Source: a virus
Reading direction: 5' to 3' (one strand)
DNA: 53,637 nt
IMG/VR virus record: IMGVR_UViG_3300010430_000057
Location: 1 to 53,637 of that record
The notes under the pieces were generated by a model that saw only the letters and a list, made by a program, of their open reading frames with translations, was not told where the DNA came from and did no database searches. Each line of letters opens with the position of its first letter. The stretch's first letter is position 1. Shown in pieces: positions 15,293 to 39,467 of the stretch. The position numbers and the translations under genes were made by a program.

Positions 15293-17329
15293 ATGATATT
15301 TGAACGAGAGTGGAAAAAACAAGCTTTCCAAACTTTATCTTTAGCACGACCTAATGCTTCAATCGATAAAATATCTAAATTAGTAGATAAACATTTTAAG
15401 AAAAAATTCAAAGATCCCGCAGTGGAGATTTATAATAGTTATGAGGAAACTATACAACAAACCCAATTATCTTTAATACCAGATATAATTGAGAAAGAGG
15501 ATTTAACGTTTCTTCCATCAGGGGTTATGTTTCACAGACCAGGTCCAGGCGTAGAAAGAAATCTCAATGCTGAGGTTCAGGAAAATCAACTTAATATGAG
15601 AAAAGTTCTTAAAGATGATATGTTTAGAGCTTTAGATGAAGAAGATTATATTACAGCCAAAGCTAAAGATAGTGGTCAACAAACTGTAAAGAAGCAAGCT
15701 AATAGTGGATTTGGTATTCTTAATAATCCATATTCATTTATATTTAGTTTCAATGCTTCATCATCAGTAACTGCTGTAGGACGAAGCTTAACTACTATAT
15801 CATCTCAAGTGTATGAAGGCACTTTAGCCGATACAGTTTTATTTCATAATATAGATGAATTTTTCTATTTTATACAATCGGTTCAAGGTAATAAGAAAGA
15901 TCGTATATTCTTTACTGATGAAATAATAGATAAGGTTCCTAGCAAAGAAGATACTGTTAATCGTCTTCTTCGTATATTTAAAAGAAATGTTGATGTATAT
16001 AATAATCCTGAAATGATATCTATAGTAGAAGATGTTGTTAATGGTTTATCTAAAGAGGATCGAATAAGAGTATTCTATAAGCGTAATATGAAAGATTTCT
16101 TAAAGAATAAACATCCTAGAGATATTTATAGAGATTTAGTGATACATATGGAAGGATATAATGATCCTACCGAACCACCTAAAATACACTTAGCTAAGAT
16201 GTTACTATTTAGAGAAATAATTATAGAATTTGTTACTTGGGTCCATATACCTTTCCGATATGAAGACAGAGCTAGACATGAAGAGAGGGAAGTGACTGTT
16301 CTAATGGATACTGATTCTAATGTAAACTATTATGGTAAATTAAAAAATGAACAATTTGATTCATTATTTGATGGACCAGTTTTCATGAGAGATGAAGATG
16401 TTGATCTTATTAAAAACAATATACTCAATACAATATCTTTCCTAGCATCAGGTTCTAATAGAGTGGTTATAGATAAGAACTTAGATATCACTCGGTCATT
16501 AGAAGATAAGAGAGATAGAATTAAGATGAAGAATGAATATTATTTCCCTATGCTCGTTATTACATCAGCTAAGAAATCATATTATGCTTCAGTAGCACGT
16601 AAGGAAGCTAAAGTATATAAAGATTTACAATTAGATGTAAAGGGGGTTTCTTTCTTTAAATCATCAGCAACACCAAAAACTTCTGAATTTATCTATGATG
16701 AATTATTATTTAAAGAGATACTCAATACTAAGAATGGTAAAATTGATACTATTAAAATAATTCGAAAGATCGAGAAATACAAGACGGATATGTTAAATGA
16801 TATCAAAGAAGGTTCTCTGGAATATTATAAGAAAGCTAAAATTAAAACAGCGGAAGCTTATTCTAGACCAATGAGTATCCAACAATATAAAGCAGCTTGG
16901 GTTTGGAGTCAATTAGTAGATGAAGAAGATCATATTGAATTACCTGGTCATGCTTTATTAATATATACCAAACTTAATAAAATTAAAGATTTAGCAGCTT
17001 TAGAAGATTATCCTGAAATATACGAGAAATTATTAAATATCTTTAAAACCAATATTGCTATAGGTGGAGGTATTACGCAAGTATATGATGAGGGGAAAAA
17101 ACGATATATTGATAAGAAAGTAAATGGTTCAGGTATCAGTGCCATCGCAATACCGATGCATTTAGAAAAGATGCCAGAATGGTTAATTCCTATTATCGAT
17201 ACATCTAAAATCATAGGAAATAATATGTCATTATTTAAACCTATATACACGCCACTTGGTTGTACGGCTCTAGAAACATCTAGTGCTTTGGGTAAAAATA
17301 AATATTATACATCAATAATTAAAATATAA
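15293..17329 (+). CDS. family B DNA polymerase, C-terminal part (fingers, palm motifs B and C, thumb)
   Basis: 678 residues. QQTVKKQANSGFGILNN (129-145) is the family B fingers motif KxxxNSxYG. VLMDTDSNVNY (336-346) is motif C with catalytic Asp339 and Asp341. ITSAKKSYYA (423-432) is the KKxY primer-template motif, followed by LDVKGVSFF, matching the KG-V segment. There is no exonuclease domain and no motif A (DxxSLYP), which are found instead in the gene at 37506-39467. The two proteins must therefore associate to make a working polymerase. The distance between motifs B and C (about 200 residues) is larger than usual, implying an insertion. A late-type promoter precedes it. A small membrane protein gene follows 9 bases downstream. 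Confidence 0.88.
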   Translation: MIFEREWKKQAFQTLSLARPNASIDKISKLVDKHFKKKFKDPAVEIYNSYEETIQQTQLSLIPDIIEKEDLTFLPSGVMFHRPGPGVERNLNAEVQENQLNMRKVLKDDMFRALDEEDYITAKAKDSGQQTVKKQANSGFGILNNPYSFIFSFNASSSVTAVGRSLTTISSQVYEGTLADTVLFHNIDEFFYFIQSVQGNKKDRIFFTDEIIDKVPSKEDTVNRLLRIFKRNVDVYNNPEMISIVEDVVNGLSKEDRIRVFYKRNMKDFLKNKHPRDIYRDLVIHMEGYNDPTEPPKIHLAKMLLFREIIIEFVTWVHIPFRYEDRARHEEREVTVLMDTDSNVNYYGKLKNEQFDSLFDGPVFMRDEDVDLIKNNILNTISFLASGSNRVVIDKNLDITRSLEDKRDRIKMKNEYYFPMLVITSAKKSYYASVARKEAKVYKDLQLDVKGVSFFKSSATPKTSEFIYDELLFKEILNTKNGKIDTIKIIRKIEKYKTDMLNDIKEGSLEYYKKAKIKTAEAYSRPMSIQQYKAAWVWSQLVDEEDHIELPGHALLIYTKLNKIKDLAALEDYPEIYEKLLNIFKTNIAIGGGITQVYDEGKKRYIDKKVNGSGISAIAIPMHLEKMPEWLIPIIDTSKIIGNNMSLFKPIYTPLGCTALETSSALGKNKYYTSIIKI

Positions 17330-17338
17330 GGAGGCTTT

Positions 17339-17701
17339 ATGAAAGATATAGATAAATCTGGTTGGGATGAGGATTATATCCCATCATCCGGAGAAATACG
17401 ATCTTATCTAATGACTAATTCATTACAGACACAAAATAACCCAACATGGATTCAAAAATTAACTAAGATGATTTTCGCTAAAGATAAGATCTTACATTTT
17501 GGAATATGTTTTGTTCTCACTTTAGTATATTCATTACTATTTAATCCAACGATTGCTTATGTATCAGTCTTAACTCTATCATTTGCTAAGGAATTTAATG
17601 ATGAATATTTAACTGAATCTTCTTATTGGAGTAACGGTGATTTATTAGCAGATCTTTTAGGTGTTGGATTAGCTCTATATGTAACAAAATTATTCTTATA
17701 A
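17339..17701 (+). CDS. small membrane protein with DKxxHF / KExxDE pattern
   Basis: 120 residues. A polar N-terminus (1-45) is followed by hydrophobic stretches at about 51-68 and 70-83 and a hydrophobic C-terminus (103-120). The motifs DKILHFG (49-55), KEFNDEY (84-90) and NGDLLADLLGVG (99-110) have the layout of small YfiM/VanZ-like membrane proteins sometimes found in phages, whose function is unknown to me. It is co-transcribed with the DNA polymerase C-terminal gene (9-base gap, AAGGAGG site) and followed by a TTCG-loop terminator. Its hydrophobicity could mean membrane anchoring of replication or involvement in lysis, but neither is shown. Confidence 0.75.
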   Translation: MKDIDKSGWDEDYIPSSGEIRSYLMTNSLQTQNNPTWIQKLTKMIFAKDKILHFGICFVLTLVYSLLFNPTIAYVSVLTLSFAKEFNDEYLTESSYWSNGDLLADLLGVGLALYVTKLFL

Positions 17702-17706
17702 TAATT

Positions 17707-17733
17707 ACTCCATCCTTCGGGATGGAGTTTTTC
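17707..17733 (+). terminator. rho-independent terminator with TTCG loop
   Basis: ACTCCATCC-TTCG-GGATGGAGT followed by TTTT. It ends the 15293-17701 operon. Confidence 0.9.
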
Positions 17734-17747
17734 ATTTCATGTTATTT

Positions 17748-17766
17748 GTATATATTATATTTATAG
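17748..17766 (+). promoter_or_regulatory. early-type promoter GTATATATTATA
   Basis: GTATATATTATATTTATAG, identical over 19 bases to the minus-strand copy at 7612-7630. It lies 32 bases before the start at 17799. Confidence 0.7.
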
Positions 17767-17798
17767 TATGATATAAAAATTAAGGAGGAATTTATTAT

Positions 17799-18035
17799 AT
17801 GTCAAATTTATATTTACCAAACTTAACACTTGATGAGTTCACTGAGATTATGTTAGATGATAGAATTTCAGTAGAAGAGAAAGAAAAGATTGCTACAGGT
17901 AGACCAGATTGGTTACATGTAGTATTAGAAGGAACTAGAACTATGCTTCATGAGAAAGGATATAAAACTAAAGGAAAATATATCGTAGATGAGAACGATA
18001 GAATTTATATAGGTTTTCCAGAAGATCTTAAATAA
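17799..18035 (+). CDS. hypothetical protein, 78 aa, first gene of an early-type operon
   Basis: A small acidic protein with no recognised motif, containing a helical N-terminal half (LTLDEFTEIMLDDRISVEEK) and a C-terminal beta-looking segment. It has an AAGGAGG site. It heads a four-gene operon of unknown genes (17799-19906) between an early-type promoter and a terminator. Small early phage proteins often inhibit host enzymes, but no target is visible here. Confidence 0.7.
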   Translation: MSNLYLPNLTLDEFTEIMLDDRISVEEKEKIATGRPDWLHVVLEGTRTMLHEKGYKTKGKYIVDENDRIYIGFPEDLK

Positions 18036-18049
18036 GGAGGAATAACTTT

Positions 18050-18781
18050 ATGAAACTAGATAAAAGAGTTATAGTTATAGAAGAGAAATTATATAGAGTT
18101 TCTGAGGATATAACTAAACTTAAAAAAGCACAAGCTTATGTATTTGAAATTATAGGGGAAGAATTTATCTTACCTTATAGAGGAAAATTACTTAAATACC
18201 TTAAAACAAATGATACTTTAAAACCAGGTATATATGAGACAAAGAAAGGATCTACTCATATAGTATTACCTAAGAAAAAAGAAAAAGTTTTATATCAATT
18301 AGATAATATTAAAGATCTATCTAATAAAAAGATATTAGATAAAACTGAATATATTAAGACAGATATTGATCTTACAGTAAATGGTGAGATAATGATACCA
18401 CCGAGACATGCAGATGATGATATACCAAATACTATGCTTAAAGCAGGTATAGCATCTAAAAGAATTAACTTTGATTCATATGGGCCAAGATATGCTGCAT
18501 TAGATATCGGTTCAGATCAATCTAGTAGAAAGACTAATGCAAAGAAAGCTATATTGAATAATACTACATTAACAGCAACGAAGTTAATACAAAATTGTAA
18601 TGCCTTAGATTTACAATTTGCTATAGTATTGGCGGATAAACCAGATGCTATTCATCCTATGATCTATGGTCCTTTAGTGATGTATTCACATGAACCATTC
18701 AATCTTAGTAGTGCAACTAATCTATTAGAAGTTCAGAGTAAGATCTTTGATCCTGCTGCTAAACTTAAGAAGGAGAAATAG
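18050..18781 (+). CDS. hypothetical protein, 243 aa
   Basis: No family recognised. Residues 1-100 are Lys-rich with alternating strands. Residues 100-240 contain a more conserved-looking region (LKAGIASKRINFDSYGPRYA, then LDIGSD, then LDLQFAIVLADKPDA). There is no signal or membrane segment and no catalytic signature I can name. It lies 14 bases downstream of the 78-aa gene, with AAGGAGG before its ATG, and ends 2 bases before the next gene. It is probably early expressed. Confidence 0.7.
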   Translation: MKLDKRVIVIEEKLYRVSEDITKLKKAQAYVFEIIGEEFILPYRGKLLKYLKTNDTLKPGIYETKKGSTHIVLPKKKEKVLYQLDNIKDLSNKKILDKTEYIKTDIDLTVNGEIMIPPRHADDDIPNTMLKAGIASKRINFDSYGPRYAALDIGSDQSSRKTNAKKAILNNTTLTATKLIQNCNALDLQFAIVLADKPDAIHPMIYGPLVMYSHEPFNLSSATNLLEVQSKIFDPAAKLKKEK

Positions 18782-18783
18782 TT

Positions 18784-19395
18784 ATGAAGAATGATTTACT
18801 TAGAAAATTATCTTTAGGTGCATTAAATATTATTTCAGAGGGTATTGAATTGGTAGAATATATTATAGATGATCTACCATCTAATACATCTTCTATAGAT
18901 AATGTACAGATTCATGATAAAGCTTTATCATCTGAAGAAATTGAAGGTATCTGTAAATCAGAGGATATTTCTTTAAATAGTATTAAAGAAAGTATTCCTG
19001 TAACGATTAATATTAAACATCAGAAAATAAAAGATAATAAGCGTGTTATTGATTTACCAGACTCTTACCCTATGAGACATTTTAAAGGAGGAGAATATAG
19101 AGTTTCTACGGAATTAATATTTCCTAAGCCTGATAATGTTGATATAAGGGATGGTATGTTTATTACGACACAAAACACTACAGAGGAACATCCTGCTACG
19201 ATTATGTGGTATAATGGTAAATTTTATCATATTACAGGAGATAGAAATATCTATGTATTATATTGGAAACATAATATAATTAAAGTTGAAGTAGGCGGGA
19301 ATTATAGAAATAATGTTTATATAAGAACTGCTCAAAATTTCTTTGAAACAGTAGAACCTGCTGTAGTATTTAAAAGATTTGATTTAAGAGACTAG
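18784..19395 (+). CDS. hypothetical protein, 203 aa
   Basis: No family recognised. The N-terminal 60 residues are helical and acidic. The rest looks beta-rich (HFKGGEYRVSTELIFPKPDN, then TIMWYNGKFYHI, then NIYVLYWKHNIIKVEVGG). It is third in the early-type operon, with AGAAGGAG at its start and a 10-base gap to the next gene. There is no signal peptide. A structural or binding protein is possible, but the sequence offers nothing decisive. Confidence 0.7.
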   Translation: MKNDLLRKLSLGALNIISEGIELVEYIIDDLPSNTSSIDNVQIHDKALSSEEIEGICKSEDISLNSIKESIPVTINIKHQKIKDNKRVIDLPDSYPMRHFKGGEYRVSTELIFPKPDNVDIRDGMFITTQNTTEEHPATIMWYNGKFYHITGDRNIYVLYWKHNIIKVEVGGNYRNNVYIRTAQNFFETVEPAVVFKRFDLRD

Positions 19396-19405
19396 GAGGT
19401 ATTGT

Positions 19406-19906
19406 ATGTCGCATACGATACATGCTCAAGAAGTATTAATAATGGAGGACTACTCTATAGAATCTCCTTCCTTATTAACATATTACCTTAAACATATTAT
19501 TGATCTTTTAAAAAATAATATGTTGTTGAGTGCAGATTATATCTTTAAAGAAAATATCATAGATTCTGTAATAATTAGCACCGTAACGACTAATTTATTA
19601 CCAACGGGTATTATGGGAATAAATGATTTAGAGATAAATTATGAACAGGATATTTTATTACACAGTATATTGTATGATATAGATAAAAATATAGTATTAA
19701 TGGGTAGAACCTATAAAGTACTAGATATTATTGTAGGTTATGATATAGATGATATTTGTGATTTTCGTAAAGAGAGTACGTATCGAATATACCAATATAC
19801 GCCGACAGTATATTATATAGGAATTAAACTTAAAGAAGTTAAAAATTATTCAAATATGGTTGAAGAGACAGTATATCAAAAGAAATTAGATTCATTAGAT
19901 TTATAA
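19406..19906 (+). CDS. hypothetical protein, 166 aa
   Basis: No family recognised. It is a soluble alpha/beta protein rich in Ile and Asp, with long strand-like segments at 50-110 and 125-150. A TAGGAGG site lies 8 bases before the ATG. It is the last gene of the early-type operon; its stop codon lies within the stem of the terminator at 19903-19932, so termination and translation end together. Confidence 0.7.
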   Translation: MSHTIHAQEVLIMEDYSIESPSLLTYYLKHIIDLLKNNMLLSADYIFKENIIDSVIISTVTTNLLPTGIMGINDLEINYEQDILLHSILYDIDKNIVLMGRTYKVLDIIVGYDIDDICDFRKESTYRIYQYTPTVYYIGIKLKEVKNYSNMVEETVYQKKLDSLDL

Positions 19907-19932
19907 GAGAGGATTTCCTCTCTTATTTTTTC
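19903..19932 (+). terminator. rho-independent terminator overlapping a stop codon
   Basis: ATAAGAGAGG-ATTT-CCTCTCTTAT followed by TTTTTTC. It ends operon 17799-19906 and sits directly upstream of the SbcC-like gene's promoter. Confidence 0.9.
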
Positions 19933-19956
19933 TTATTACCTTTATATTTTTTGGTC

Positions 19957-19968
19957 AACATTGTCCTA
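19957..19968 (+). promoter_or_regulatory. late-type promoter AACA-N6-TA
   Basis: AACATTGTCCTA, 16 bases upstream of the TTG start at 19985. Confidence 0.6.
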
Positions 19969-19984
19969 TAGAGAGGTGATTTAA

Positions 19985-22702: not shown

Positions 22703-22710
22703 GGGGCTAC

Positions 22711-23085
22711 ATGAAAATATTATTGAGGGAAGGTGTAAATAAAAACGGTGTTTATTATTCCAAGAACATCGTTCAAGATTTACACGTACAAATAGATTCA
22801 ATGTTAAAGGTATTTAATTATATACCCATCTTACACACAAAACCAGAAACCATAGAAGATGTGACTATGTTGGATCCGAGACAGTTTGCTGGTTTAGTTA
22901 CAGGTAGACTATCAGAGGATACCTTTGAGATAACCTGGTTTGGATCATGGAAGAAATTTGCTAGTGAAGAATATGTTTTAGCAATATCTTCTACTGCAAA
23001 GCTAGAAGACATGTTTGTTAAACATATAGAGTTTAAGGGATTTTATTTACAAGAAGCCAGAAATTCTGTTTGGAGGAATGAATAA
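22711..23085 (+). CDS. hypothetical protein, 124 aa
   Basis: No firm family. The N-terminus REGVNKNGVYYSKNIVQDL resembles the start of the next protein (RHGRYYSQETMDEI) and, loosely, the NGRxYP opening of phage prohead-protease-like proteins, but catalytic residues are not identifiable. It lies 8 bases after the SbcC-like gene with a GGGGGC site, and its stop overlaps the ATG of the next gene (TAATG). Position in the operon suggests replication- or recombination-time expression. Confidence 0.7.
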   Translation: MKILLREGVNKNGVYYSKNIVQDLHVQIDSMLKVFNYIPILHTKPETIEDVTMLDPRQFAGLVTGRLSEDTFEITWFGSWKKFASEEYVLAISSTAKLEDMFVKHIEFKGFYLQEARNSVWRNE

Positions 23086-23768
23086 TGACTGTTTTTAAAT
23101 TTACAGATAAACCAGGACTATGTAGGCATGGTAGATATTATTCTCAAGAAACTATGGATGAAATCGCTCAAACTATTAGGGGTAATATGATTAAATCTCC
23201 TATGTTGGTGAGTTTGGATACAGAAATAATTGGTAAAGCTACTAAGCTTTTAGTTGAGAAAACAGAAACAGGAAAAGAATATAGGATTGATGTAGATCTG
23301 AATAAAGATATTAGTATAGAAAATCCTATTGTATCTTTCTCTCTACAAGCTAATCTACAAAATGGTACTAATGTAGTATACCCAAGAAATATTCAATTAA
23401 AATTAATTGAAGAAAAGGATAGTGATTTCTGTTTATATGGATTAAATCATTTAAAATTAGTTAGTGAATTAATAAATCTAGGTTTCTCTTATAAAGTAGA
23501 TCATGGATATATTAGCTGTGCTAAGGATGTATTAAATGAAAATCTTATAATAGAATTTAGTGTAAGTAGTATTCATGTTGCTATCAATGGTAAAAATTCT
23601 TTTGAATTATTTGATGGTAATTTAATATCAGAATCGGATATTAGTGAATGGGGTAAATATGTTATTTTGGATAGATATCCAACTGTAGATGATATATTCC
23701 TAGCTATGTCTATATGTCGAGCTTGGGATTATATAGAGAAGCCAATAAAATCTGAAATATTTGGATAA
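23085..23768 (+). CDS. hypothetical protein, 227 aa, with module shared by the next gene
   Basis: Two regions. Residues 1-115 begin like the upstream 124-aa protein (GRYYSQETMDEIAQTIRGN). Residues 120-205 (SELINLGFSYKVDHGYISC ... ILDRYPTVDDIF) closely parallel the whole of the 92-aa protein encoded next (EELLVLGLEFE ... LILDNYPTIDNIY). This looks like a duplicated small domain of unknown function. The start overlaps the previous stop and has TTTGGAGGAATGA in front. Confidence 0.7.
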   Translation: MTVFKFTDKPGLCRHGRYYSQETMDEIAQTIRGNMIKSPMLVSLDTEIIGKATKLLVEKTETGKEYRIDVDLNKDISIENPIVSFSLQANLQNGTNVVYPRNIQLKLIEEKDSDFCLYGLNHLKLVSELINLGFSYKVDHGYISCAKDVLNENLIIEFSVSSIHVAINGKNSFELFDGNLISESDISEWGKYVILDRYPTVDDIFLAMSICRAWDYIEKPIKSEIFG

Positions 23769-23788
23769 TTTTTGAGGAGGAGTTATTT

Positions 23789-24067
23789 ATGAAAGCACAG
23801 AAATTAACAGAAGAATTATTAGTTTTAGGTTTGGAATTTGAAACAAGAGGTGGTAAGAATTTCTTACATGGTACTCTTCAAGGAGTAGATGTAAAAATTA
23901 GATTTAGTGAGACAGGTGTATTAGTCGATACAGGATCGCCTATTGAGTTAGTGGATAATACACGCATCGATTGGCAAAGCGCCCCTATAGTTGGTGAAAG
24001 ATTGATATTAGATAATTACCCGACGATAGATAATATCTATGAGGTAATAGGTGGCTCCAATGAATAA
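23789..24067 (+). CDS. hypothetical protein, 92 aa, paralogue of a domain in the previous gene
   Basis: Consists almost entirely of the module seen at residues 120-205 of the previous protein. It starts KLTEELLVLGLEFE, continues with strands VDVKIRFSETGVLVD, and ends in ERLILDNYPTIDNIYEVIG. The function is unknown. It has a strong GAGGAGGAG site. Its last codons carry the ribosome-binding region and start of the next gene, so translation is probably coupled. Confidence 0.7.
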   Translation: MKAQKLTEELLVLGLEFETRGGKNFLHGTLQGVDVKIRFSETGVLVDTGSPIELVDNTRIDWQSAPIVGERLILDNYPTIDNIYEVIGGSNE

Positions 24068-25025: not shown

Positions 25026-25046
25026 CCTTCGGGCTAGATCTTTTTT
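25022..25046 (+). terminator. rho-independent terminator with TTCG loop
   Basis: CTAGCC-TTCG-GGCTAG, then ATC and six T, directly at the stop codon of the preceding gene. Confidence 0.85.
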
Positions 25047-27569: not shown

Positions 27570-29177
27570 CTATATTTCATATATTGGTTTTTTTACGTTG
27601 ATATCTTTTAATTCAACTGTATCTTTAGTACGAGTAAGCATATAAGATGTTAGAATAAATTCTTTAGATAATGTCCTCATAAAGTTACCATTAGGATCTA
27701 CTAAGTTAGCTATTGATTCTGTTGAGCGTTTACCTTCAGCGTTCGTTTCAATAGAGAAGCCCATCTTATTAGATGTTGTATCACCATCATGATCTCCACC
27801 AATTTCAGCAAGAATTGTATTAGAGAAAACCTCTACATCCATAAAGGCATTCTCAGGATTACCTTCTACCGTTGGGAAGAAAGGATAGAATTTATCACCT
27901 ATAGTTATTGCTGTAGTATTTTTTGTAGATAAAGGAACTATCTTACCTGTAAACTGACTATTAATAGATGTTACTGGATATCTTGTTGTATATGTATATT
28001 TATCAGTACATATATCTGCTGCCACAAGATATAATACATCTGTAAAAGTAGCAGGTCTTTGTAAGGTAGTATTCTCTTTATTAAGTCTACCAGTTATAAA
28101 CATTTTTAAATCTTGACCTGAATCATTCTCTGGTATCAATACTGGATCAAAACGTAAACCCGGTGTACTGATATAGTTATCGATCATTTCAGAGATCTCT
28201 TCTTCATCATAGGATCTTAATATCGTGCAATATTTTAATTTTCCAGTACCAGCTTCCTTATAAGGATATTTACCCCCACGAAGAAATTCATTATCAAAAT
28301 AACGTTTCATTCCAAATAGAATAAAGGGATATAGTCCTGAACAAACTTGGGCTAGAGGTATACCTATCTCGCCGAATTTGATTTGTACATCATCCACACT
28401 TTCTTGATTTAAATCTCTTGCAGCAATAACTGATCTAGAAGAATAATCTATACTCTTGCTTCGATAGTTTCTTTTAAGATATCCTTTCTTAGAAGGTTGA
28501 CCTTTTACCTTTGTAAGAATGAAGTCTCTATAGATATCTACCAACAAGGACTGAACTCTTCCTCGAGTAGCAGTTTGGATGATATTATCAAAACCCTCTG
28601 TATATGTTTCAATGTTTCTTACAGAAGATATAATTTGTGCATAAACATCATTTATAGAGTTCATACCTATGGTATTAGTTCCTGTTCTAATATCTCTATA
28701 AGATACAGGTAATATTAAGAACTTAGTAACAAAAAGATTATCCCTAGGTACATCAAAAGCTTCTTTCACTTCTTTTGTAAGGATAGTATTCTTTTCTTTT
28801 TTCTTAACTTTATCCCATATCGAATAAAGATACTCAGGTCCTGTTTGACCATCGTCATCCTCAATTAAGTCTCCCTCAACTAGCTTATATCGCTCCAAAC
28901 CATACAGAATATTATTTAATCTTCTATCAAATGCTTTAAGTTTTAAAGCAGCGATAGGTTCCATATAATGTCCTTTAAGATCCATATAAGCCATACGTAC
29001 TTTACGTTCATCTACACTAGACCCGAATATACTATAAGATAATAATCCATCTTCTGTAGGATATCCATTAGTCATATAAACAGGGTTAGTTACTTCTTCT
29101 AATTTATTAATTTCTATTATTTTTTCAATATCTTTAGCCGAATACATTTCGGTTACTAATCCGGGATGATTTTTCAT
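27570..29177 (-). CDS. DNA-directed RNA polymerase beta-prime, N-terminal part with catalytic DxDxD
   Basis: 535 residues covering the N-terminal half of beta-prime. DGLLSYSIFG (43-52) matches the RDGLxxxxIFG start, and MDLKGHYMEPIAAL (65-78) matches the GHIxLAxPV clamp segment. SIDYSSRSVI (242-251) matches the KRVDYSGRSVI block. EIGGDHDGDTTS (458-469) is the metal-binding NADFDGD loop with Asp462, 464 and 466 retained and N-A-x-F changed to G-G-x-H. LTSYMLTR near the end matches the QDxxLGxYxxT helix. N-terminal zinc cysteines are absent. It carries the active-site Mg triad but needs beta pieces and a beta-prime C piece from other genes. Its promoter is late-type, unlike the beta-prime C gene, so it may be a virion polymerase subunit packaged for the next infection. 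Confidence 0.9.
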   Translation of the reverse strand: MKNHPGLVTEMYSAKDIEKIIEINKLEEVTNPVYMTNGYPTEDGLLSYSIFGSSVDERKVRMAYMDLKGHYMEPIAALKLKAFDRRLNNILYGLERYKLVEGDLIEDDDGQTGPEYLYSIWDKVKKKEKNTILTKEVKEAFDVPRDNLFVTKFLILPVSYRDIRTGTNTIGMNSINDVYAQIISSVRNIETYTEGFDNIIQTATRGRVQSLLVDIYRDFILTKVKGQPSKKGYLKRNYRSKSIDYSSRSVIAARDLNQESVDDVQIKFGEIGIPLAQVCSGLYPFILFGMKRYFDNEFLRGGKYPYKEAGTGKLKYCTILRSYDEEEISEMIDNYISTPGLRFDPVLIPENDSGQDLKMFITGRLNKENTTLQRPATFTDVLYLVAADICTDKYTYTTRYPVTSINSQFTGKIVPLSTKNTTAITIGDKFYPFFPTVEGNPENAFMDVEVFSNTILAEIGGDHDGDTTSNKMGFSIETNAEGKRSTESIANLVDPNGNFMRTLSKEFILTSYMLTRTKDTVELKDINVKKPIYEI

Positions 29178-31389: not shown

Positions 31390-31392
31390 TAT

Positions 31393-31773
31393 TTAGCCCT
31401 CCTCATTCTTCTTAACTAAAACTGATAAACTTTTATTATCTTCCGAGGGAGTAACAAGACTTAAATATACTCCTCGGTCTGTGGTTATACTCAACCCTAT
31501 TAGAGTTGTAGTTTTATCCTTCTGGTAAAAATCTGCTTCGATATATTCATAATCTGAATATGTATTAATATTTTCTTCTATAACTGACTTCATTGATTCT
31601 TGATCACTGATAGATTTGTAATTCATTGATAATATATCAATGCCTTTTTTAAGATTATATTCATCATCTCCAGGCTTCATTTTAAAGAGAGTGTGTATAT
31701 TTCTTTTGATTTCGTCTTCTCGATCAGTTAAGGTCGAATTATTATTAATATCTCTATCAAAAGTTGCATCCAT
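31393..31773 (-). CDS. hypothetical protein, 126 aa
   Basis: Starts MDATFDRDINNNSTLTDRED and has an alpha/beta pattern (TLIGLSITTDRGVYLSLVTP). The start and strand order resemble small baseplate-wedge proteins of the gp25 type, but I do not see the specific motif and make no call. A TAGGAGG site precedes the ATG. It heads the operon 31773-29245; its promoter is only a near match (AACT-N6-TA). The gene for the Zn-finger nuclease diverges from it. Confidence 0.65.
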   Translation of the reverse strand: MDATFDRDINNNSTLTDREDEIKRNIHTLFKMKPGDDEYNLKKGIDILSMNYKSISDQESMKSVIEENINTYSDYEYIEADFYQKDKTTTLIGLSITTDRGVYLSLVTPSEDNKSLSVLVKKNEEG

Positions 31774-31789
31774 TTCAAATACCTCCTAT

Positions 31790-31801
31790 TATATAAAAGT
31801 T
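31790..31801 (-). promoter_or_regulatory. weak late-type promoter candidate (one mismatch)
   Basis: Minus-strand AACTTTTATATA, 16 bases before the start at 31773. It differs from the rule at the fourth base. Confidence 0.35.
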
Positions 31802-31830
31802 ATCTATTTAAATTACTACCAGACATTTAA

Positions 31831-31842
31831 AACACATATATA
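31831..31842 (+). promoter_or_regulatory. late-type promoter AACA-N6-TA
   Basis: AACACATATATA, 22 bases before the start at 31865. Exact match to the rule. Confidence 0.65.
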
Positions 31843-31864
31843 TAATAGTAATGGAGGTGTAATC

Positions 31865-33196
31865 ATGGCATATAATTGCCCAGTGTGTAATAAAAGTTTT
31901 GGTAAATCCAAAATAACTAAACATCATGGAGAAGAAATAAAAATAGGCCCAAAAGAATTATTAATAGATCATATTGTCGATAGACATCCAAATCAAATCC
32001 CAAAAGATATGGATGTATATCAATTTCTATACTATTCTAGGACAGGTGATAGATCTGGACCTTGTATGGTATGTGGTAATCAAACAGAATGGAATTATGA
32101 TAATGGTAAACCTTTTAAAGTTTGTGAAGATGAAAACTGTGTAAAGAAATTAGCTAAATCTGCTGATAAGAATCATAAAAAGGTTCATGGTAAATCTCGT
32201 GGTGAGATATTATCAGATCCACATTATCAAAATGATACGATGTTAGGTAATCAAAAACGTGCTAAGATATATCGTTTTAAAGATGGTGGAGAGAATATTA
32301 CTTTATCTCGATTAGAATATGAGGGAGATGAACATTTTGATAAAGTTTTAGGATTTACATCTAAAATGGTTATTGAATGTCCTTATCATTTTAAATATAA
32401 AGATAAAGGTAAGCTTCGTCATTACTTACCAGATAGATATCTACCTGATTATAATCTTATTGTAGAATATAAAGAGGGTGGAGATAATCCTAATACTAAT
32501 CCAGCTTATATAAAGGAAACTAAGTATAAACAAAAACTTAAAGCTGAGGCTGTTAAGAAAGATGGTAGATTCCATTATATTATTATTGAGGATAGTAACT
32601 TCGAACCTTTATTAGAATTACTTGATAAAATTAAAAGAGAAGGATCTCATAAGAAAAATAGTAAGAAAAAGAAACATTATGTATTAAATGAATCTGCTGT
32701 AAAGTTAGCAGAAATTCCAGAAGAGGGTGAAAATATGTTTATGCAATTAGTAACATTTCATTTGAAAGGTACTGGAGATATTGCTGAAATTTGTATTGTG
32801 GATGATCCTCAAAGTAAGAAAATGATGCCATTGAAAGGTGATACCATAAATTTCATTGATATGGATACACAAGAGTATATAGATAATTATACTGTCAAGG
32901 TATACAATATTGCTCCACATGGATCTATGAATATATCAGATTTCTGGAAAATCATTCTAACGTTAATGAAAGAATCAAATAAGAAAGTTGAAGCTGTTTA
33001 TGGATTTATTATGGATCTATTATCTTTCTATAATATAGGTATACATATAAATGATGTATTTACTAATAATCAAGAAGCTATTATGGACTTTGGTATTGTA
33101 TTTGAAGGTAAATCGATAACGGATTATTTATGGTATATTAATCAAAAGAAAGAAACACTCAATGAACAAGCTTTAATGAAACTATTGAATATATAA
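31865..33196 (+). CDS. zinc-finger protein with PD-(D/E)XK nuclease domain
   Basis: 443 residues. Residues 1-21 form a Cys2His2-like finger (CPVCNKSF...KHH; Cys5, Cys8). A second cluster at Cys67, Cys70, Cys87 and Cys92 (CMVCG...CEDENC) is a treble-clef-like zinc ribbon. Residues 145-240 contain LPDRYLPDYNLIVEYKEG (188-205), the PD...ExK core of Vsr-like and PD-(D/E)XK nucleases, with Asp195, Glu201 and Lys203. A separate C-terminal domain (about 290-443) is unknown. The ATG at 31865 with GGAGG is used; the open frame upstream to 31640 lies across the promoter and has no such site. The architecture suggests a DNA nuclease, perhaps for host DNA or recombination intermediates. GH16 follows in the same operon. 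Confidence 0.75.
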   Translation: MAYNCPVCNKSFGKSKITKHHGEEIKIGPKELLIDHIVDRHPNQIPKDMDVYQFLYYSRTGDRSGPCMVCGNQTEWNYDNGKPFKVCEDENCVKKLAKSADKNHKKVHGKSRGEILSDPHYQNDTMLGNQKRAKIYRFKDGGENITLSRLEYEGDEHFDKVLGFTSKMVIECPYHFKYKDKGKLRHYLPDRYLPDYNLIVEYKEGGDNPNTNPAYIKETKYKQKLKAEAVKKDGRFHYIIIEDSNFEPLLELLDKIKREGSHKKNSKKKKHYVLNESAVKLAEIPEEGENMFMQLVTFHLKGTGDIAEICIVDDPQSKKMMPLKGDTINFIDMDTQEYIDNYTVKVYNIAPHGSMNISDFWKIILTLMKESNKKVEAVYGFIMDLLSFYNIGIHINDVFTNNQEAIMDFGIVFEGKSITDYLWYINQKKETLNEQALMKLLNI

Positions 33197-33209
33197 GGAG
33201 GATATATTA

Positions 33210-34649
33210 ATGAAACCACTATTACAAAGATTATATGAAGCAGAGCAATCTATTGACGAGTTAAAAGATATTTTAGACAATAAATTCAAAACATCTGTTA
33301 ATGATAAAGATTTTGATATTATTGTTAGTAATACGGGAAAAATTGTAGCTTTACCCAAAGATAGTGTTTATAAAATAAATCATGATAAATTATTAGTAAA
33401 TTACATGGGATTCGATGGTAAATTTGTTATCAGTTTAGATGATTCTGGACTTAATCCTAATTGGGTAAATACTAATATGATCTGTGAAATTAGTGACGGT
33501 GAACAAAAGTTAACTCCTATCGGAGTAGATAATCAAATTCGATATGATGTTGTTGATAGTGTTAATAATACGGACGTATGGTATTTCGGTGCTTGGTTTT
33601 ATAATAATGAGGAAGCAGTAGATTTAGCAACGGCTGTTGTTCATGATGGAGGTACTGATTGGAATATAAAGACTGCTATAAATAAAACAACATCATGGGA
33701 ATGGCATAGTCTCATTATAGATTTATCTCTATATACTAATGGGAGACTTCTTGCTTTTTATATTAAAAATAAATCTTTTACAGATGGCGGTCAACTGATA
33801 AAAATTAAGAATGCTCATTTCTTTAATTTATCTGAAGCATATACTACACAAGATAAGGATTCTATGGACATCATAATGGAAAATACCGATGAGTATTTAT
33901 ATAGAGGTATTCTCGAAGATAGTATAACTATTAATACTGCTACAGATGTTGATAAACTTTTAAGAGATTATACTCTTTATTGGGAAGATCAATTTGAAGG
34001 AAGTGCTTTAGATCCTTCTAGATGGAATCATCGATATCTAGGTATTAGAAATAGTGCTATAAATATAGAAGATGCTATAGAAGTTTCTGATGGATCTCTT
34101 AAAATAAAGACTTATCAAAATAATGGTGAAGCTTATACAGGAATGATTTCTACTGATAACTTATTTGAAACCAAATATGGGTATTTTGAAATGAGAGCAA
34201 AATTACCTAAAAATAATGTTTGTTGGCCTGCATTTTGGTTACAGTCTGATACAATAGGTAATATTATTGGTGACACCAGAAATAGTGGGACTGAAATAGA
34301 TATCATGGAAGATTTTACTTCTGGATATGGACGTATCCAACATGCCTTACATTGGGATGGATATGATGTAAATCATCAAACAGAAAATTTCAAACAACTA
34401 TATCCTGATATTGTTGACTTTAATGATGAATATCATACATTTGGTGCAATGTGGGATACAAATGGTTATAAGTTCTATATAGATGGATATCTAACATATG
34501 AAACAACATCCGCGCCAAGTGATGTTGCTGAGTATATTATTTTAAGTTGTGAGGTTGATGAAAATAGAAAGAAAACTTTATTATCGGATAATACTCTCAC
34601 AGATAAATTCGAAATTGATTATGTTAAAGTTTATAAGAAAAATGGTTAA
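33210..34649 (+). CDS. GH16 glycoside hydrolase (beta-glucanase-type), likely virion-associated
   Basis: 479 residues. Residues 254-478 form a GH16 jelly roll: YWEDQFEGSALDPSRWNHRY at the start, GYFEMRAKLP (324-333), WPAFWL, and the catalytic EIDIMED (362-368) with nucleophile Glu362, Asp364 and acid/base Glu367 of the ExDxxE motif. WDTNGYKFYIDG and the terminal FEIDYVKVYK are typical of family ends. Residues 60-205 resemble a carbohydrate-binding beta-sandwich, and the first 25 form a helix (LLQRLYEAEQSIDELKDIL) that could anchor to the virion. GH16 enzymes cleave beta-1,3/1,4-glucans, galactans or related polymers. A capsule or exopolysaccharide depolymerase is the likely role. There is no signal peptide, consistent with release on the particle or at lysis. 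Confidence 0.9.
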   Translation: MKPLLQRLYEAEQSIDELKDILDNKFKTSVNDKDFDIIVSNTGKIVALPKDSVYKINHDKLLVNYMGFDGKFVISLDDSGLNPNWVNTNMICEISDGEQKLTPIGVDNQIRYDVVDSVNNTDVWYFGAWFYNNEEAVDLATAVVHDGGTDWNIKTAINKTTSWEWHSLIIDLSLYTNGRLLAFYIKNKSFTDGGQLIKIKNAHFFNLSEAYTTQDKDSMDIIMENTDEYLYRGILEDSITINTATDVDKLLRDYTLYWEDQFEGSALDPSRWNHRYLGIRNSAINIEDAIEVSDGSLKIKTYQNNGEAYTGMISTDNLFETKYGYFEMRAKLPKNNVCWPAFWLQSDTIGNIIGDTRNSGTEIDIMEDFTSGYGRIQHALHWDGYDVNHQTENFKQLYPDIVDFNDEYHTFGAMWDTNGYKFYIDGYLTYETTSAPSDVAEYIILSCEVDENRKKTLLSDNTLTDKFEIDYVKVYKKNG

Positions 34650-34653
34650 TAGT

Positions 34654-34665
34654 AACAATATAATA
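34654..34665 (+). promoter_or_regulatory. late-type promoter AACA-N6-TA
   Basis: AACAATATAATA, 23 bases before the start at 34689. It is identical over 14 bases to the minus-strand element at 15223. Confidence 0.7.
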
Positions 34666-34688
34666 AATTATCTAAGGAGGAAGTTAAA

Positions 34689-35348
34689 ATGTCAAGACCG
34701 ACAATGAAACGTATTTATACACCAGATTATAAAAATCTTACACCAATGAAAAAGGTAAATGGTCCAGTTAAGGGTCCAACTAAGCCAGCTCTAGTTCCAA
34801 TTGAGATTGTTAAAGAATGTTTAATGGAACCAAATCATGGTAGAATCTTTGAGGTTATTGAAGTAGATCGCAGATATGGTAAAGCGGTTTATTCAGATCC
34901 TGTTGAACTTACTTTAGAAAATTACAGTAAACCATATTCTAAAATAGTTGGGAATACAGTTGAAAAAATAGTTGTTGAAGATAAATCTGCTGTTGAATTA
35001 GTGAAAGATCAACAAATTGATTTATCGACAGAAACACCTGCAGAAGAAGCAAGTACTCCTGAAGAATCTGCTAAAGAAGAATTAACAGAAACACCTGCAG
35101 AAGAAACACCAGAAACACCTGCAGAAGAAACAAGTACTCCTGAAGAAGAAACACCAGAAACACCTGCAGAAGAAACAAGTACTCCTGAAGAAGAAACACC
35201 AGAAACACCTGCAGAAGAAACAAGTACTCCTGAATCTGAAGAACAGGATAATACGGCAGAAGAACCATCAAAAACTAATACTAAACCGGAAAAAACAGCC
35301 AAACAAAAAAGAAGAGAAAAGAAACAACAATCTTCTAAAGACAAGTAA
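34689..35348 (+). CDS. hypothetical protein with Glu/Thr/Pro tandem repeats
   Basis: 219 residues. Residues 1-105 form a compact N-terminal region (MSRPTMKRIYTPDYKN start). Residues 113-183 are a low-complexity ETPAEE/TSTPEEE repeat region, with a 45-base DNA unit near-perfectly repeated. The C-terminus is basic (KTAKQKRREKKQQSSKDK). The disordered acidic repeat between a folded head and a basic tail suggests a tether, perhaps a virion decoration or internal head protein. An AAGGAGG site and a late-type promoter precede it, and it is monocistronic. Repeat number may vary between relatives. Confidence 0.75.
   Translation: MSRPTMKRIYTPDYKNLTPMKKVNGPVKGPTKPALVPIEIVKECLMEPNHGRIFEVIEVDRRYGKAVYSDPVELTLENYSKPYSKIVGNTVEKIVVEDKSAVELVKDQQIDLSTETPAEEASTPEESAKEELTETPAEETPETPAEETSTPEEETPETPAEETSTPEEETPETPAEETSTPESEEQDNTAEEPSKTNTKPEKTAKQKRREKKQQSSKDK
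35112..35234 (+). repeat. 45-bp tandem repeat, about 2.7 copies
   Basis: Copies start at 35112, 35157 and 35202 and are identical over the compared bases, encoding ETPAEETSTPEEETP per unit; identity ends at 35234. Shorter related fragments lie just upstream (from about 35031). Confidence 0.85.
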
Positions 35349-35358
35349 GCTAAACAAC

Positions 35359-35402
35359 ATTAAACTGCTACTTTAAGGACAGGTACTAGTTTAATACTTT
35401 TT
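35359..35402 (+). terminator. possible terminator of the repeat-protein gene
   Basis: Stem ATTAAACT / AGTTTAAT with a 21-base loop, followed by ACTTTTT. The long loop makes it less certain than others here. Confidence 0.45.
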
Positions 35403-35492
35403 CCGTGGTGTAGATATATCAACCCTTTATACAACTGAATAAAGATGTAATATTAAGTAGTGATATGATATCACTCGATCGTAGAATAGTAG

Positions 35493-35522
35493 AAATGGTA
35501 GAGGGAATGCCCTCTACCATTT
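35493..35522. terminator. 13-bp hairpin between convergent genes
   Basis: AAATGGTAGAGGG-AATG-CCCTCTACCATTT is perfect over 13 bp. T-runs are weak on both sides, but its place between convergent genes suggests termination in either direction, especially of the minus-strand gene at 35534. Confidence 0.6.
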
Positions 35523-35533
35523 ACTCTGTAATT

Positions 35534-36706
35534 TTATTTAACGTATAATCGATAAGGTTGTTTAGTTTGTTTATCAACAGCTTTACCTTTATCAAAATCA
35601 ATCTTCATTTTGATTTTCTTTTTCTTTGGTAATAATTCTTTAGGGAAATCTTTCATCTTCTTACCGCTATCTATATCCACGGCCATAAACTTCCAACTTG
35701 AATCATCATCTTCATCTACCACAACAACGACTTCATATTTACCTTCTAGATGAATATGTTTTTCAAAAGCAGTTAATTCAATAGAACCCCCTTTAATCAT
35801 ACTACCGAAATCTTTAGCTAATGCTTGATCTGATGACTTCTTCTTTTTATTGTAGTTACCATCATCATCTTCATCTGCCCAAGAATCTTTCTTCTTTTTC
35901 TTATTCTTCTTCTTTTCAGATATATCATCATCATTATCATATACCCCACGAAGAATATTAAGTCCAAGCGCATTGATTGTCTTAGTGCTATCTGTATCAT
36001 CTTCACGTTTCTGATCTTGTTTAAGTTCAAGATTAGACATAGTTTTACCAATATTATGTAGTTCCTTAGAACAATCTAATTTGGCCTTAGATAGTGATAT
36101 AAGGTTAGCAAATTGTTGAGCCTTATACATTCTAGATCCACCAGGTTTAGCTAAATCAACCTCTACCATAGTACTAATAGTGTCTAGTTCATCTTTAACC
36201 TCAAGAACACTTCCTAAGACAGGAGCGAATCTTTGAGGATATTTTTCTTCTGAAACTAAATCTTTTGGTTTAGCTTTCTTACCCGAAGCCCTTTTCTTAC
36301 GAGCATCACGATATTTACCTACATCAGGATCTTCATCATCCCCCTCTTCAATTCTTATAGGGGCTGTATTAAATATACCTCTAATCAAACTATTATGATC
36401 TTTACGTTTTTGTTTCTTAGATTTCTTAGCAGATTTTTCTTTTTCTTTAGATTTCTTTTGTTCATACTTCTTTTCTGCATCAGCTTTCTCTTTCTTGAAT
36501 AAATTAAGTTTAGCTTCAAGATCTTCTATCTCAACAGATTTTTCCTCGGCCATCTCTTTATATCTATCAGCATCTTTAAACTCAAATGATATACGTCCAT
36601 CTGAATCCAAATTCTTTTTATCTATTTCTGTTGCATCGGAGTATCGAGATCTGAGAGCATCCATTTGAAGATCAGATATTTCTGTCTTTCCTTTACTAAA
36701 TTCCAT
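35534..36706 (-). CDS. highly charged coiled-coil protein, 390 aa
   Basis: Residues 45-110 form a strongly charged coiled coil with Lys/Glu-rich runs (KKYEQKKSKEKEKSAKKSKK), followed by an acidic linker and two more Lys/Asp-rich stretches near 270-300. A C-terminal domain (about 305-390) is beta-rich with many Lys. I do not recognise the family. The ATG at 36706 has GAGGAGG upstream and is preferred over the frame opening at 36721. It is monocistronic with a late-type promoter (36731-36742). The charge pattern fits a virion-internal or scaffold-like protein rather than an enzyme. Confidence 0.75.
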   Translation of the reverse strand: MEFSKGKTEISDLQMDALRSRYSDATEIDKKNLDSDGRISFEFKDADRYKEMAEEKSVEIEDLEAKLNLFKKEKADAEKKYEQKKSKEKEKSAKKSKKQKRKDHNSLIRGIFNTAPIRIEEGDDEDPDVGKYRDARKKRASGKKAKPKDLVSEEKYPQRFAPVLGSVLEVKDELDTISTMVEVDLAKPGGSRMYKAQQFANLISLSKAKLDCSKELHNIGKTMSNLELKQDQKREDDTDSTKTINALGLNILRGVYDNDDDISEKKKNKKKKKDSWADEDDDGNYNKKKKSSDQALAKDFGSMIKGGSIELTAFEKHIHLEGKYEVVVVVDEDDDSSWKFMAVDIDSGKKMKDFPKELLPKKKKIKMKIDFDKGKAVDKQTKQPYRLYVK

Positions 36707-36730
36707 AATTAGCCTCCTCACGTATCATAT

Positions 36731-36742
36731 TATGTATATGTT
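36731..36742 (-). promoter_or_regulatory. late-type promoter AACA-N6-TA
   Basis: Minus-strand AACATATACATA, 24 bases before the start at 36706. Confidence 0.7.
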
Positions 36743-36770
36743 GAGCTAGTTATTTTATATTTCATACAGA

Positions 36771-36797
36771 AAAAGAGGTGAGTGCATCAGCACTCAC
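36771..36797 (-). terminator. rho-independent terminator
   Basis: The minus strand reads GTGAGTGC-TGAT-GCACTCAC followed by CTCTTTTTC. It ends the DNA polymerase N-part operon. Confidence 0.85.
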
Positions 36798-36802
36798 TTA
36801 TT

Positions 36803-37504
36803 CTATTTTTCTATCATATTTGTATTAAAACCAGATAAAGTTTCTCGAACCTTACCTTTAGTTAAATATAGATTTAATTGATAAATCTTATCTATTGTTG
36901 TAGCTCGTAAAGTTATTTCAGATGTAGAATATTTCTTTCTTTTGAATATAGAAGAGAGTAAAGGTATTGCTACCTCATAGTCTTTAAAATCTACAATGAA
37001 GGGTTCATACATACCAGCTTCTGATATAATATAATCTATAGTTTCCTGAGATAAATCATATGAGACAACATAAGGATCTTGTAATATTGCATAAGATGTT
37101 TTACAAAAGTCTTCAGCTTTATATCTATCATCGTATAATATTTCTCTTTTATAAACGTTACCGTATAGTTCATTTAAATATTCAGCTTTCACATGAATAA
37201 TATTATCAGTAATAGTATATAAATAAGAAACTTCTTTAGGTTTAATTTTATCCGCTTTACGATCACCCTCTATTTCTTTTATAAATAAATTAATAAAGGT
37301 ATATAATTCTTTAGCGTTAAAGCATAGATTATCAGGAAGTTGGATATTTTCATAACCATGATCTATAATAACACTAAAACCAAATTCATCTTCATCATCA
37401 TTCTTATCATAAGCTGCAATAAGGATTCCATCTTTTACAATGAAGTCTCTTTTATAATTTTTACATACTTTCAATAAATCGAATAACTCTTTTAAATTAT
37501 ACAT
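36803..37504 (-). CDS. hypothetical protein, 233 aa, possible sliding-clamp-like protein
   Basis: Starts one base after the stop of the DNA polymerase N-part gene, with GGAGG 6 bases before the ATG at 37504. Its length is close to T4 gp45 (228 aa). The opening LKELFDLLKVCKNYKRDFIV, then KDGILIAA, then CFNAKELYTFINLF resembles the first clamp repeat, where a helix is followed by paired strands and another helix. The second half repeats a similar alternation (YDLSQETIDYIISEAGMYEP). No clamp signature is conserved enough for certainty. If right, it would tether the split polymerase to DNA. A repeat-based polymerase accessory protein is the alternative. Confidence 0.7.
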   Translation of the reverse strand: MYNLKELFDLLKVCKNYKRDFIVKDGILIAAYDKNDDEDEFGFSVIIDHGYENIQLPDNLCFNAKELYTFINLFIKEIEGDRKADKIKPKEVSYLYTITDNIIHVKAEYLNELYGNVYKREILYDDRYKAEDFCKTSYAILQDPYVVSYDLSQETIDYIISEAGMYEPFIVDFKDYEVAIPLLSSIFKRKKYSTSEITLRATTIDKIYQLNLYLTKGKVRETLSGFNTNMIEK

Positions 37505-37505
37505 A

Positions 37506-39467
37506 CTAATCCTCCATTTCATCTAATTCTTTAATCAGATCAAGAGAGGTACCTAATCCAAACCAAACATTACCTACTGATATCATATCTTCTGAAATAA
37601 GATCAGACATAAATTCTCCCCCAGGAACATATTTAGATTCATTATATGGGTTCTGTCTATTAGATATCTTTTCTTTAATAACCAATCTACCAAATTGTGT
37701 GACATCTGATATATTATATACAATAGTAGCATTAGGATAGTGTGCAGTGTAATCTTCATCCATAGAATCAGGGAATATATGACTAGAATGATGACCCTTA
37801 AATAATTCTATACCTACAGATTTATTAAGGTTAGGATCAGCAACCACTCCTGCTTTTAATTCATGATCTTTAAAAGGACTATCACAAAAATCACTTTCTA
37901 CTATATGAATAGCTTTAGAGATTTTCTCATCTTCTGATATATCTTCATCAATATCTTCTTTGATGCTTTCTATCCTATCTTGATGATCGTCAGCAGATCT
38001 ATTACGAGCATAATCGGTATTCTTATTATTACCCGGGATATAGCCTTCTTTAATATAATAATCATAATATACATTTCGAAGATATGTATTTAGTTTATTA
38101 ATTTTATGAGGCGCTGTTGCTGTCATATTTACTTCAAACATTAGATTCTCGATATGACCTACAAGAAACTCAATAACAACTTGTATAATAACATCGACGA
38201 TCGAATAAATATAAAATTCTCTATATGCCAACATAGGAGCATTCATTACATCTACACCGGGGTCACTAAATTTCTTTTTAGTTATTCCTGCTTCAACTTG
38301 AGCAATATTATCTAAAGAATTTGAACCATAATCTTTTCTACCTTTTAATACAGCGGCATATAAAATCATTTGATCTATATTTGTACAAGTGTTAGTTATC
38401 TGTATACGGGTATTTCTATTACACATCTCAATACCGGCACGATCATCGATATTCATATCAATAAATCTGATTTCTTCTGGGAATCCCGGATGTGACATAA
38501 TATCAACAGGATTATGACCTAACATTTCTAATCGATCATGAATCTTGGGAATATCATAAGCTATATTCCAAACACCACATGTATCAGGACTCGCTGCATG
38601 AAATAATTGCCAAAACTTTAAAAGCATCTCTTCTTCGGATTCACAAGGAACATGATTAAATTTCATTTTCATACCAATCTCTTTAAGAAAATTCTTTTTC
38701 TTATTTTTGACAGTAATCTCTAAATCAGAAATTTCTTTATTACATGCCTCGTATATTCCTTCAACATCAGAAAAGAATTTCTTTTGACCTTTGTACTTAT
38801 CATATTTCTTTACAGCAAATGTATAAGAATGTATTTTACCATCAGCTTTTTGAGTTTTAGGGTTATACATAAACATGATAGTTATCATATTTATTGGATT
38901 AATCCCTCTAACTTCATACTCATTAACAGTAAATCGTTGACCTTCATCATTATACATATCAGACTCAATATCCAGAAAACATTTACGGATATTATGGTTT
39001 CTCATAGTATTATAAGTAGATCCTAATAATTGACGATATCGACTCTCTATATCCATATCGGTATAAAATGTATATGGGTATTTATGTAACTCTTTCTTTA
39101 AAGAAAATTGACGAGTATCATAATATCTATTAAGAATCTTTTTGAAATTTTTGCCCACATCACTAGAATCTTTCTTAACCTCTTTAGCTATCGCATCTAA
39201 AACAAAAGCATGACGACATTCAATTGAATACGTTTTATCTTTTGAAAAATACATACGAGGGGTAATATAATCTCTAAATTCTTCTTTAGCAAAATATATT
39301 TCAATAGTAGGTCTAGGTATGAATTCTACCTGTTTCGTATCTGTAGCATCTCTAAAAACAATAATAAATACATCATCTTTATAACTATTTTTATGCTTAA
39401 ACTGTTCATAATATAAACAAGATATAATAGTTATATCTGAATTATCTTTTATGGGTAAAAGTTTCAT
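37506..39467 (-). CDS. family B DNA polymerase, N-terminal part (exonuclease plus palm motif A)
   Basis: 653 residues. The 3'-5' exonuclease motifs are present in order: Exo I FLDIES (164-169; Asp166, Glu168), Exo II NIAYDIP (301-307; Asp305) and Exo III YSIVDV (421-426; Asp425). The chain continues through ELKAGVVADPN (the G-x-V-x-x-P lead-in) to motif A EDYTAHYPNATIVYN (571-585), where Asp572 is the catalytic residue of DxxxLYP, and stops about 75 residues later. Fingers and motifs B and C are absent and lie in the gene at 15293-17329. The last residues (IKELDEMED) are not truncated mid-helix by a visible frameshift, as the gene has a clean stop and operon context. It is divergent from portal, each with its own late-type promoter. 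Confidence 0.9.
   Translation of the reverse strand: MKLLPIKDNSDITIISCLYYEQFKHKNSYKDDVFIIVFRDATDTKQVEFIPRPTIEIYFAKEEFRDYITPRMYFSKDKTYSIECRHAFVLDAIAKEVKKDSSDVGKNFKKILNRYYDTRQFSLKKELHKYPYTFYTDMDIESRYRQLLGSTYNTMRNHNIRKCFLDIESDMYNDEGQRFTVNEYEVRGINPINMITIMFMYNPKTQKADGKIHSYTFAVKKYDKYKGQKKFFSDVEGIYEACNKEISDLEITVKNKKKNFLKEIGMKMKFNHVPCESEEEMLLKFWQLFHAASPDTCGVWNIAYDIPKIHDRLEMLGHNPVDIMSHPGFPEEIRFIDMNIDDRAGIEMCNRNTRIQITNTCTNIDQMILYAAVLKGRKDYGSNSLDNIAQVEAGITKKKFSDPGVDVMNAPMLAYREFYIYSIVDVIIQVVIEFLVGHIENLMFEVNMTATAPHKINKLNTYLRNVYYDYYIKEGYIPGNNKNTDYARNRSADDHQDRIESIKEDIDEDISEDEKISKAIHIVESDFCDSPFKDHELKAGVVADPNLNKSVGIELFKGHHSSHIFPDSMDEDYTAHYPNATIVYNISDVTQFGRLVIKEKISNRQNPYNESKYVPGGEFMSDLISEDMISVGNVWFGLGTSLDLIKELDEMED

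What the first reader, a model, noticed from the sequence alone, without database searches (positions are those of the whole stretch)
15293..39467. Family B DNA polymerase split between motifs A and B into two genes about 20 kb apart on opposite strands
37506-39467 (minus) holds Exo I, II and III and motif A (DYTAHYPN) and ends about 75 residues later. 15293-17329 (plus) holds the fingers motif KKQANSGFG, motif C (MDTDS) and the KKxY motif, with no exonuclease. Each half has its own ribosome-binding site, stop codon and AACA-N6-TA promoter, so this is a working split rather than a broken gene. Bipartite family B polymerases are known (adjacent cistrons in some T4-like Aeromonas phages; two polypeptides in Methanothermobacter). 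A distant, opposite-strand split would require trans-assembly of the active site.
Basis: partly seen in the sequence, partly recalled or inferred. Interest (0 to 1): 0.82.

Follow-up and report, generated by a model that had tools for sequence, protein, structure and literature searches.

The report
Two-gene DNA polymerase of jumbo phage
This phage fragment makes its replication DNA polymerase as two separate proteins that must come together to form one active site; this is genuine, but it is the normal arrangement in the phiKZ/PBS1 group of giant phages and was already annotated in phage AR9.

Summary
ORF 37506-39467 (-) carries the exonuclease motifs and polymerase motif A; ORF 15293-17329 (+) carries fingers, motif B, motif C and the KxY motif. 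Sequence profiles and predicted structures place the two halves end to end on one RB69/T4-type polymerase: N-half on RB69 ~1-470, C-half on ~430-897. The break lies between the motif A block and the fingers.

It is not unique. AR9, PBS1, BpSp, MarsHill, phiR1-37, LPJP1, JD-Fnp4, Moabite and phiKZ itself have the same two genes, as do sampled IMG/VR relatives. Motif A was on the exonuclease protein in 34 of 34 distinct sequences, and motifs B and C on the other protein in 56 of 56. No ORF matched both profiles. In 32 other genomes the halves are 1.3-48 kb apart, 16 on the same strand and 16 on opposite strands. [quoted passage not shown] Three complete relatives have no other family B polymerase.

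Best explanation: an obligate two-subunit family B replicase whose palm active site is assembled in trans. Assembly is inferred, not shown. Verdict: a new, divergent member of a known kind.

The parts
15293..17329 (+). C-terminal half of family B DNA polymerase (fingers, motif B, motif C, KxY, thumb), 678 aa
   Evidence: Pfam divDNApol E 3.7e-41 and DNA_pol_B E 1.9e-9; phrog_2927 DNA polymerase E 1.5e-62; tblastn to AR9 g152 E 4e-45; model pLDDT 86, RB69 gp43 427-897 Z 14.2
37506..39467 (-). N-terminal half of family B DNA polymerase (N-domain, 3'-5' exonuclease, palm motif A), 653 aa
   Evidence: phrog_3011 DNA polymerase E 7.8e-37; tblastn to AR9 g132 E 5e-26; profile to RB69 97-432 E 2.4e-23; model RB69 1-~470 Z 28.1
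37731..37760 (-). motif A, D570-E-D572-YTAHY577-P578-N
   Evidence: D570, D572, Y577 and P578 invariant in 34/34 distinct N-halves
38958..38972 (-). Exo I, D166-I-E168-S-D170
   Evidence: D166 and E168 in 31/31 sequences that cover the site
38553..38567 (-). Exo II, N301-IAY-D305
   Evidence: D305 in 31/31 sequences that cover the site
38193..38207 (-). Exo III, Y421-SIV-D425
   Evidence: Y421 and D425 in 34/34
15599..15613 (+). fingers R103-x3-K107, expected nucleotide-triphosphate ligands
   Evidence: R103 56/56, K107 55/56; equivalence to RB69 R482/K486 is inference from family knowledge
15689..15715 (+). motif B, K133-KQAN137-SGF-G141
   Evidence: K133, N137 and G141 in 56/56; aligned to KILANSFYG of archaeal PolB
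16304..16318 (+). motif C, M-D339-T-D341-S342
   Evidence: DTDS in 56/56
16571..16582 (+). KKSY (KxY) motif
   Evidence: K428 and Y430 in 56/56
15267..15278 (+). AACA-N6-TA late-promoter-like element of the C-half
   Evidence: same consensus as AR9 late promoters in PMC5312081
39489..39500 (-). AACA-N6-TA late-promoter-like element of the N-half

Best explanation
The two genes encode the two obligate subunits of one family B replicative DNA polymerase of a phiKZ/PBS1-type jumbo phage. The minus-strand gene supplies the N-domain, the proofreading exonuclease and the palm strand with the motif A aspartate. The plus-strand gene supplies the fingers, the remaining palm with the motif C aspartates, and the thumb. 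The proteins are made separately under the same class of promoter and associate without splicing, so the two-metal active site is completed across the subunit interface. Shown here: both halves, their motifs, their tiling on RB69 gp43, clade-wide conservation, and absence of another family B polymerase in complete relatives. Inferred: physical association and activity.
For: Motif A invariant on N-halves (34/34) and motifs B/C on C-halves (56/56), none fused. N-half profile ends at RB69 432, just past motif A; C-half profile covers archaeal PolB fingers and motif B, and its model starts at RB69 427-453. N-half model matches RB69 1-~470, Z 28, while its motif A stretch 566-594 has pLDDT under 50 when folded alone, as expected if the partner completes the palm. 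PF00136 hits only the two halves in AR9, MarsHill and phiR1-37, on consecutive profile segments; no family A or PolIII alpha. Subunit distances agree, r 0.95, 0/5000 permutations. AR9 annotation and text describe the same pair. Precedent: split 43A/43B of phage 25 co-purify and are active (PMC2988022).
Against: No complex was predicted (the tool folds single chains) and no biochemistry was found for this clade. Tree agreement shows co-inheritance only; it does not prove contact. The window is a fragment, so a second polymerase in this very genome is not excluded. The low pLDDT around motif A could also reflect the poorly aligned insertion before it.
Confidence: 0.9

Rival explanations
1. The C-half is a self-sufficient divergent polymerase and the N-half a stand-alone proofreading exonuclease that merely associates with it, as Iyer et al. 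2021 worded it for group 1 jumbo phages.
For: PMC7824862 states that these polymerases lack a fused exonuclease, which is encoded elsewhere. The C-half folds confidently alone (pLDDT 86).
Against: A pattern scan found no motif A-like stretch upstream of motif B in any of 56 C-halves, while motif A is invariant in the so-called exonuclease. The C-half model begins at RB69 427-453, after motif A. AR9 gp132 is itself described as having a partial catalytic domain.
Confidence: 0.06
2. Remains of one polymerase gene broken recently by inversion or insertion, non-functional.
For: The halves lie 20 kb apart on opposite strands.
Against: Full-length ORFs, own promoters, all catalytic residues retained, and the same cut in every sampled relative including phiKZ.
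Confidence: 0.01
3. The halves are joined by split-intein trans-splicing, as in Nanoarchaeum or phage Aes123.
For: Such systems exist for PolB (PMC4104785; PMC11923092 abstract).
Against: No intein family hit in either protein, and the tails at the break align with those of the clade.
Confidence: 0.02

Closest known systems
AR9/PBS1 two-subunit polymerase (gp152 + gp132), Takahashivirus
   Same: Same cut between motif A and motif B, same neighbours (nvRNAP beta' next to the C-half, SbcC between the halves, portal near the N-half), same AACA-N6-TA/G promoter type
   Different: About 25% identity; halves 15 kb apart on one strand in AR9, 20 kb apart on opposite strands here
phiR1-37 g167/g170, MarsHill, LPJP1, JD-Fnp4, Moabite, phiKZ PHIKZ050/PHIKZ082
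   Same: Motif A on the exonuclease protein, motifs B/C on the other
   Different: Order, strand and spacing vary from 1.7 to 48 kb; some halves carry further interruptions
Aeromonas T4-like phage 25/44RR gp43A/gp43B
   Same: Family B polymerase as two polypeptides; active when co-purified
   Different: T4-like phages, parts separated only by an intercistronic or seg insertion; an isolated event rather than a clade-wide state
Methanobacteriales split PolB3 and Nanoarchaeum split PolB
   Same: Two-gene family B polymerase
   Different: Archaeal, likely from intein excision or with trans-splicing

Membership tests
phiKZ/PBS1-group bipartite family B polymerase | Exonuclease plus motif A on one protein | tested here: met
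phiKZ/PBS1-group bipartite family B polymerase | Fingers, motif B, DTDS motif C, KNE and KxY on a second protein (Pfam divDNApol) | tested here: met
phiKZ/PBS1-group bipartite family B polymerase | Phage encodes its own multisubunit RNA polymerase | tested here: met
   RNAP subunit ORFs at 9408-11501 and 27570-29177; 9408-11501 matches AR9 g154 E 3e-29
phiKZ/PBS1-group bipartite family B polymerase | Physical association of the two proteins | not testable with these tools
   single-chain folding only
Split-intein PolB | Intein halves at the break | tested here: not met
   no intein family in Pfam scan of either protein; tails match non-intein homologues
T4-like gp43A/gp43B | Neighbouring cistrons of gene 43 in a T4-like phage | tested here: not met
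   20 kb apart on opposite strands, AR9-like neighbourhood

The most novel reading that the evidence does not exclude
Across the whole phiKZ/PBS1 supergroup the family B replicase is an ancient obligate heterodimer with its catalytic aspartates divided between two proteins, rather than a polymerase with a separate accessory exonuclease as the 2021 survey worded it.
Probability: 0.85. Interest if true: 0.5.

Novelty: new member of a known kind. Interest (0 to 1): 0.33.

Why it matters
It shows that the split replicase is a stable, clade-wide design that holds regardless of gene order. It also shows that annotations calling one half a stand-alone exonuclease overlook that it carries an essential piece of the polymerase active site. 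Anyone expressing a phiKZ-type polymerase would need both proteins.

Tried and rejected
Single-sequence searches of IMG/VR with each half found nothing, and one alignment was too divergent for patterns; tighter or other alignments worked. Single-sequence searches of PDB chains gave nothing; profiles did. Broken gene and intein ideas were rejected as above. The small gene downstream of the N-half (36803-37522) has no detectable similarity to the BpSp gene in that place. A paper search for explicit mention of the phiKZ gp50/gp82 pair found none in the open library.

Full report
Observation. Both ORFs are present as described. The window is the entire IMG/VR record, 53,637 bases. It carries RNA polymerase subunits, a helicase, an SbcC-like ATPase, a tail sheath and a terminase, and looks like a distant PBS1/AR9 relative. 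The 9408-11501 product matches the AR9 non-virion RNAP beta' C-terminal subunit (E 3e-29). The SbcC product matches AR9 g139 (E 5e-48). The 39569-41869 product weakly matches the BpSp portal protein (E 1e-7). In AR9 the RNAP gene lies near the C-half, SbcC lies between the halves, and the portal lies just past the N-half; the window keeps that order, but its N-half gene is on the other strand.

Identity of the halves. The C-half hits Pfam divDNApol and DNA_pol_B and PHROG DNA polymerase families; the N-half hits PHROG DNA polymerase families. In annotated phages the best relatives are AR9, PBS1, Goe21, BpSp, Staphylococcus jumbo phages, LPJP1 and Fusobacterium phages, plus phiR1-37 for the N-half, all around 22-27% identity.

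The split is clade-wide. [quoted passage not shown] phiR1-37 g167 and g170 lie on opposite strands 1.7 kb apart. phiKZ has PHIKZ050 and PHIKZ082, both labelled DNA polymerase; a profile of N-halves finds PHIKZ082 at 7e-37. Alignments of distinct homologues gave motif A D570, D572, Y577 and P578 in 34 of 34 N-halves. R103, K133, N137, G141, DTDS, KNE, K428 and Y430 were invariant in 56 of 56 C-halves. No ORF in the fetched loci matched both profiles.

Arrangement. Of 32 other genomes with both halves, 16 have them on the same strand and 16 on opposite strands, with gaps of 1.3 to 48 kb; 11 of the opposite-strand cases are at least 8 kb apart. In the 288-kb record G045, one of the closer relatives of the window, they are opposite and about 93 kb apart. 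The window arrangement is therefore ordinary for the group.

Fold. The N-half profile matches RB69 gp43 97-432, ending just after motif A (E 2.4e-23). The C-half profile matches archaeal PolB 452-548 and RB69 554-594. The C-half model (pLDDT 86) matches RB69 427-897, Z 14.2, rmsd 4.4 over 380 residues. The N-half model (pLDDT 79) matches RB69 from residue 1 to about 470, Z about 28, rmsd 3.1 to 3.5 over about 370 residues. Many of its alignments run on to RB69 570-578, but there the aligned model residues are low-confidence ones. The join falls at about RB69 432-453, between the motif A block and the fingers. The motif A stretch of the isolated N-half is predicted with pLDDT under 50 (residues 566-594), consistent with a palm that is incomplete without its partner.

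No substitute polymerase. In AR9, MarsHill and phiR1-37, PF00136 matches only the two halves, on consecutive parts of the profile; in three large relatives of the window it matches only the C-half. Family A and PolIII alpha models match none of nine genomes.

Coupling. Pairwise distances of the two subunits correlate at r 0.949 over 25 genomes, and none of 5000 permutations reached this. This shows inheritance as a pair; it does not show contact. Both genes carry the AACA-N6-T[AG] element at positions typical of this window, matching the AR9 late promoter consensus. AR9 lists both genes as continuously expressed.

Mechanism and literature. Trans-assembly of a split family B polymerase has direct precedent: 43A and 43B of Aeromonas phage 25 co-purify and are active (PMC2988022). 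For the phiKZ/PBS1 group the survey of Iyer et al. 2021 speaks of a polymerase without fused exonuclease and of a separate exonuclease protein (PMC7824862). The present alignments show that this second protein also holds motif A, so it is better seen as the N-terminal polymerase subunit. Equivalence of R103/K107/K133/N137 to RB69 R482/K486/K560/N564, and of D572 and motif C to RB69 D411 and D623, rests on established knowledge of the family.

Verdict. Real and functionally meaningful, but a new divergent member of a known kind. Interest is moderate to low for this locus, somewhat higher for the clade-wide reading.

Noticed in passing
window 33210-34649 +: Protein with a glycosyl hydrolase family 16 domain (Pfam E 4e-15), possibly a tail or cell-wall-polysaccharide enzyme.
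   Followed up: no
window 31640-33196 +: Endonuclease-like protein (phrog_15137 E 5e-19), possibly a homing endonuclease.
   Followed up: no
window 3251-4099 - and 4560-5267 -: Thymidylate synthase-like and thymidylate kinase-like genes; with AR9-type promoters this raises the question whether the genome contains deoxyuridine like PBS1.
   Followed up: no
L007 13938-15951; L034 5992-8671; L006 1850-4173; L013/L014: One or other polymerase half is itself broken into two ORFs in several relatives (BpSp, an IMG/VR relative of the window, phiR1-37, LPJP1), probably by introns or other insertions.
   Followed up: partly
L054 and L092 (contig IMGVR_UViG_3300025000_000053): Two different C-half genes in one 249,853-base record: a duplicated polymerase subunit or a chimeric assembly.
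   Followed up: no
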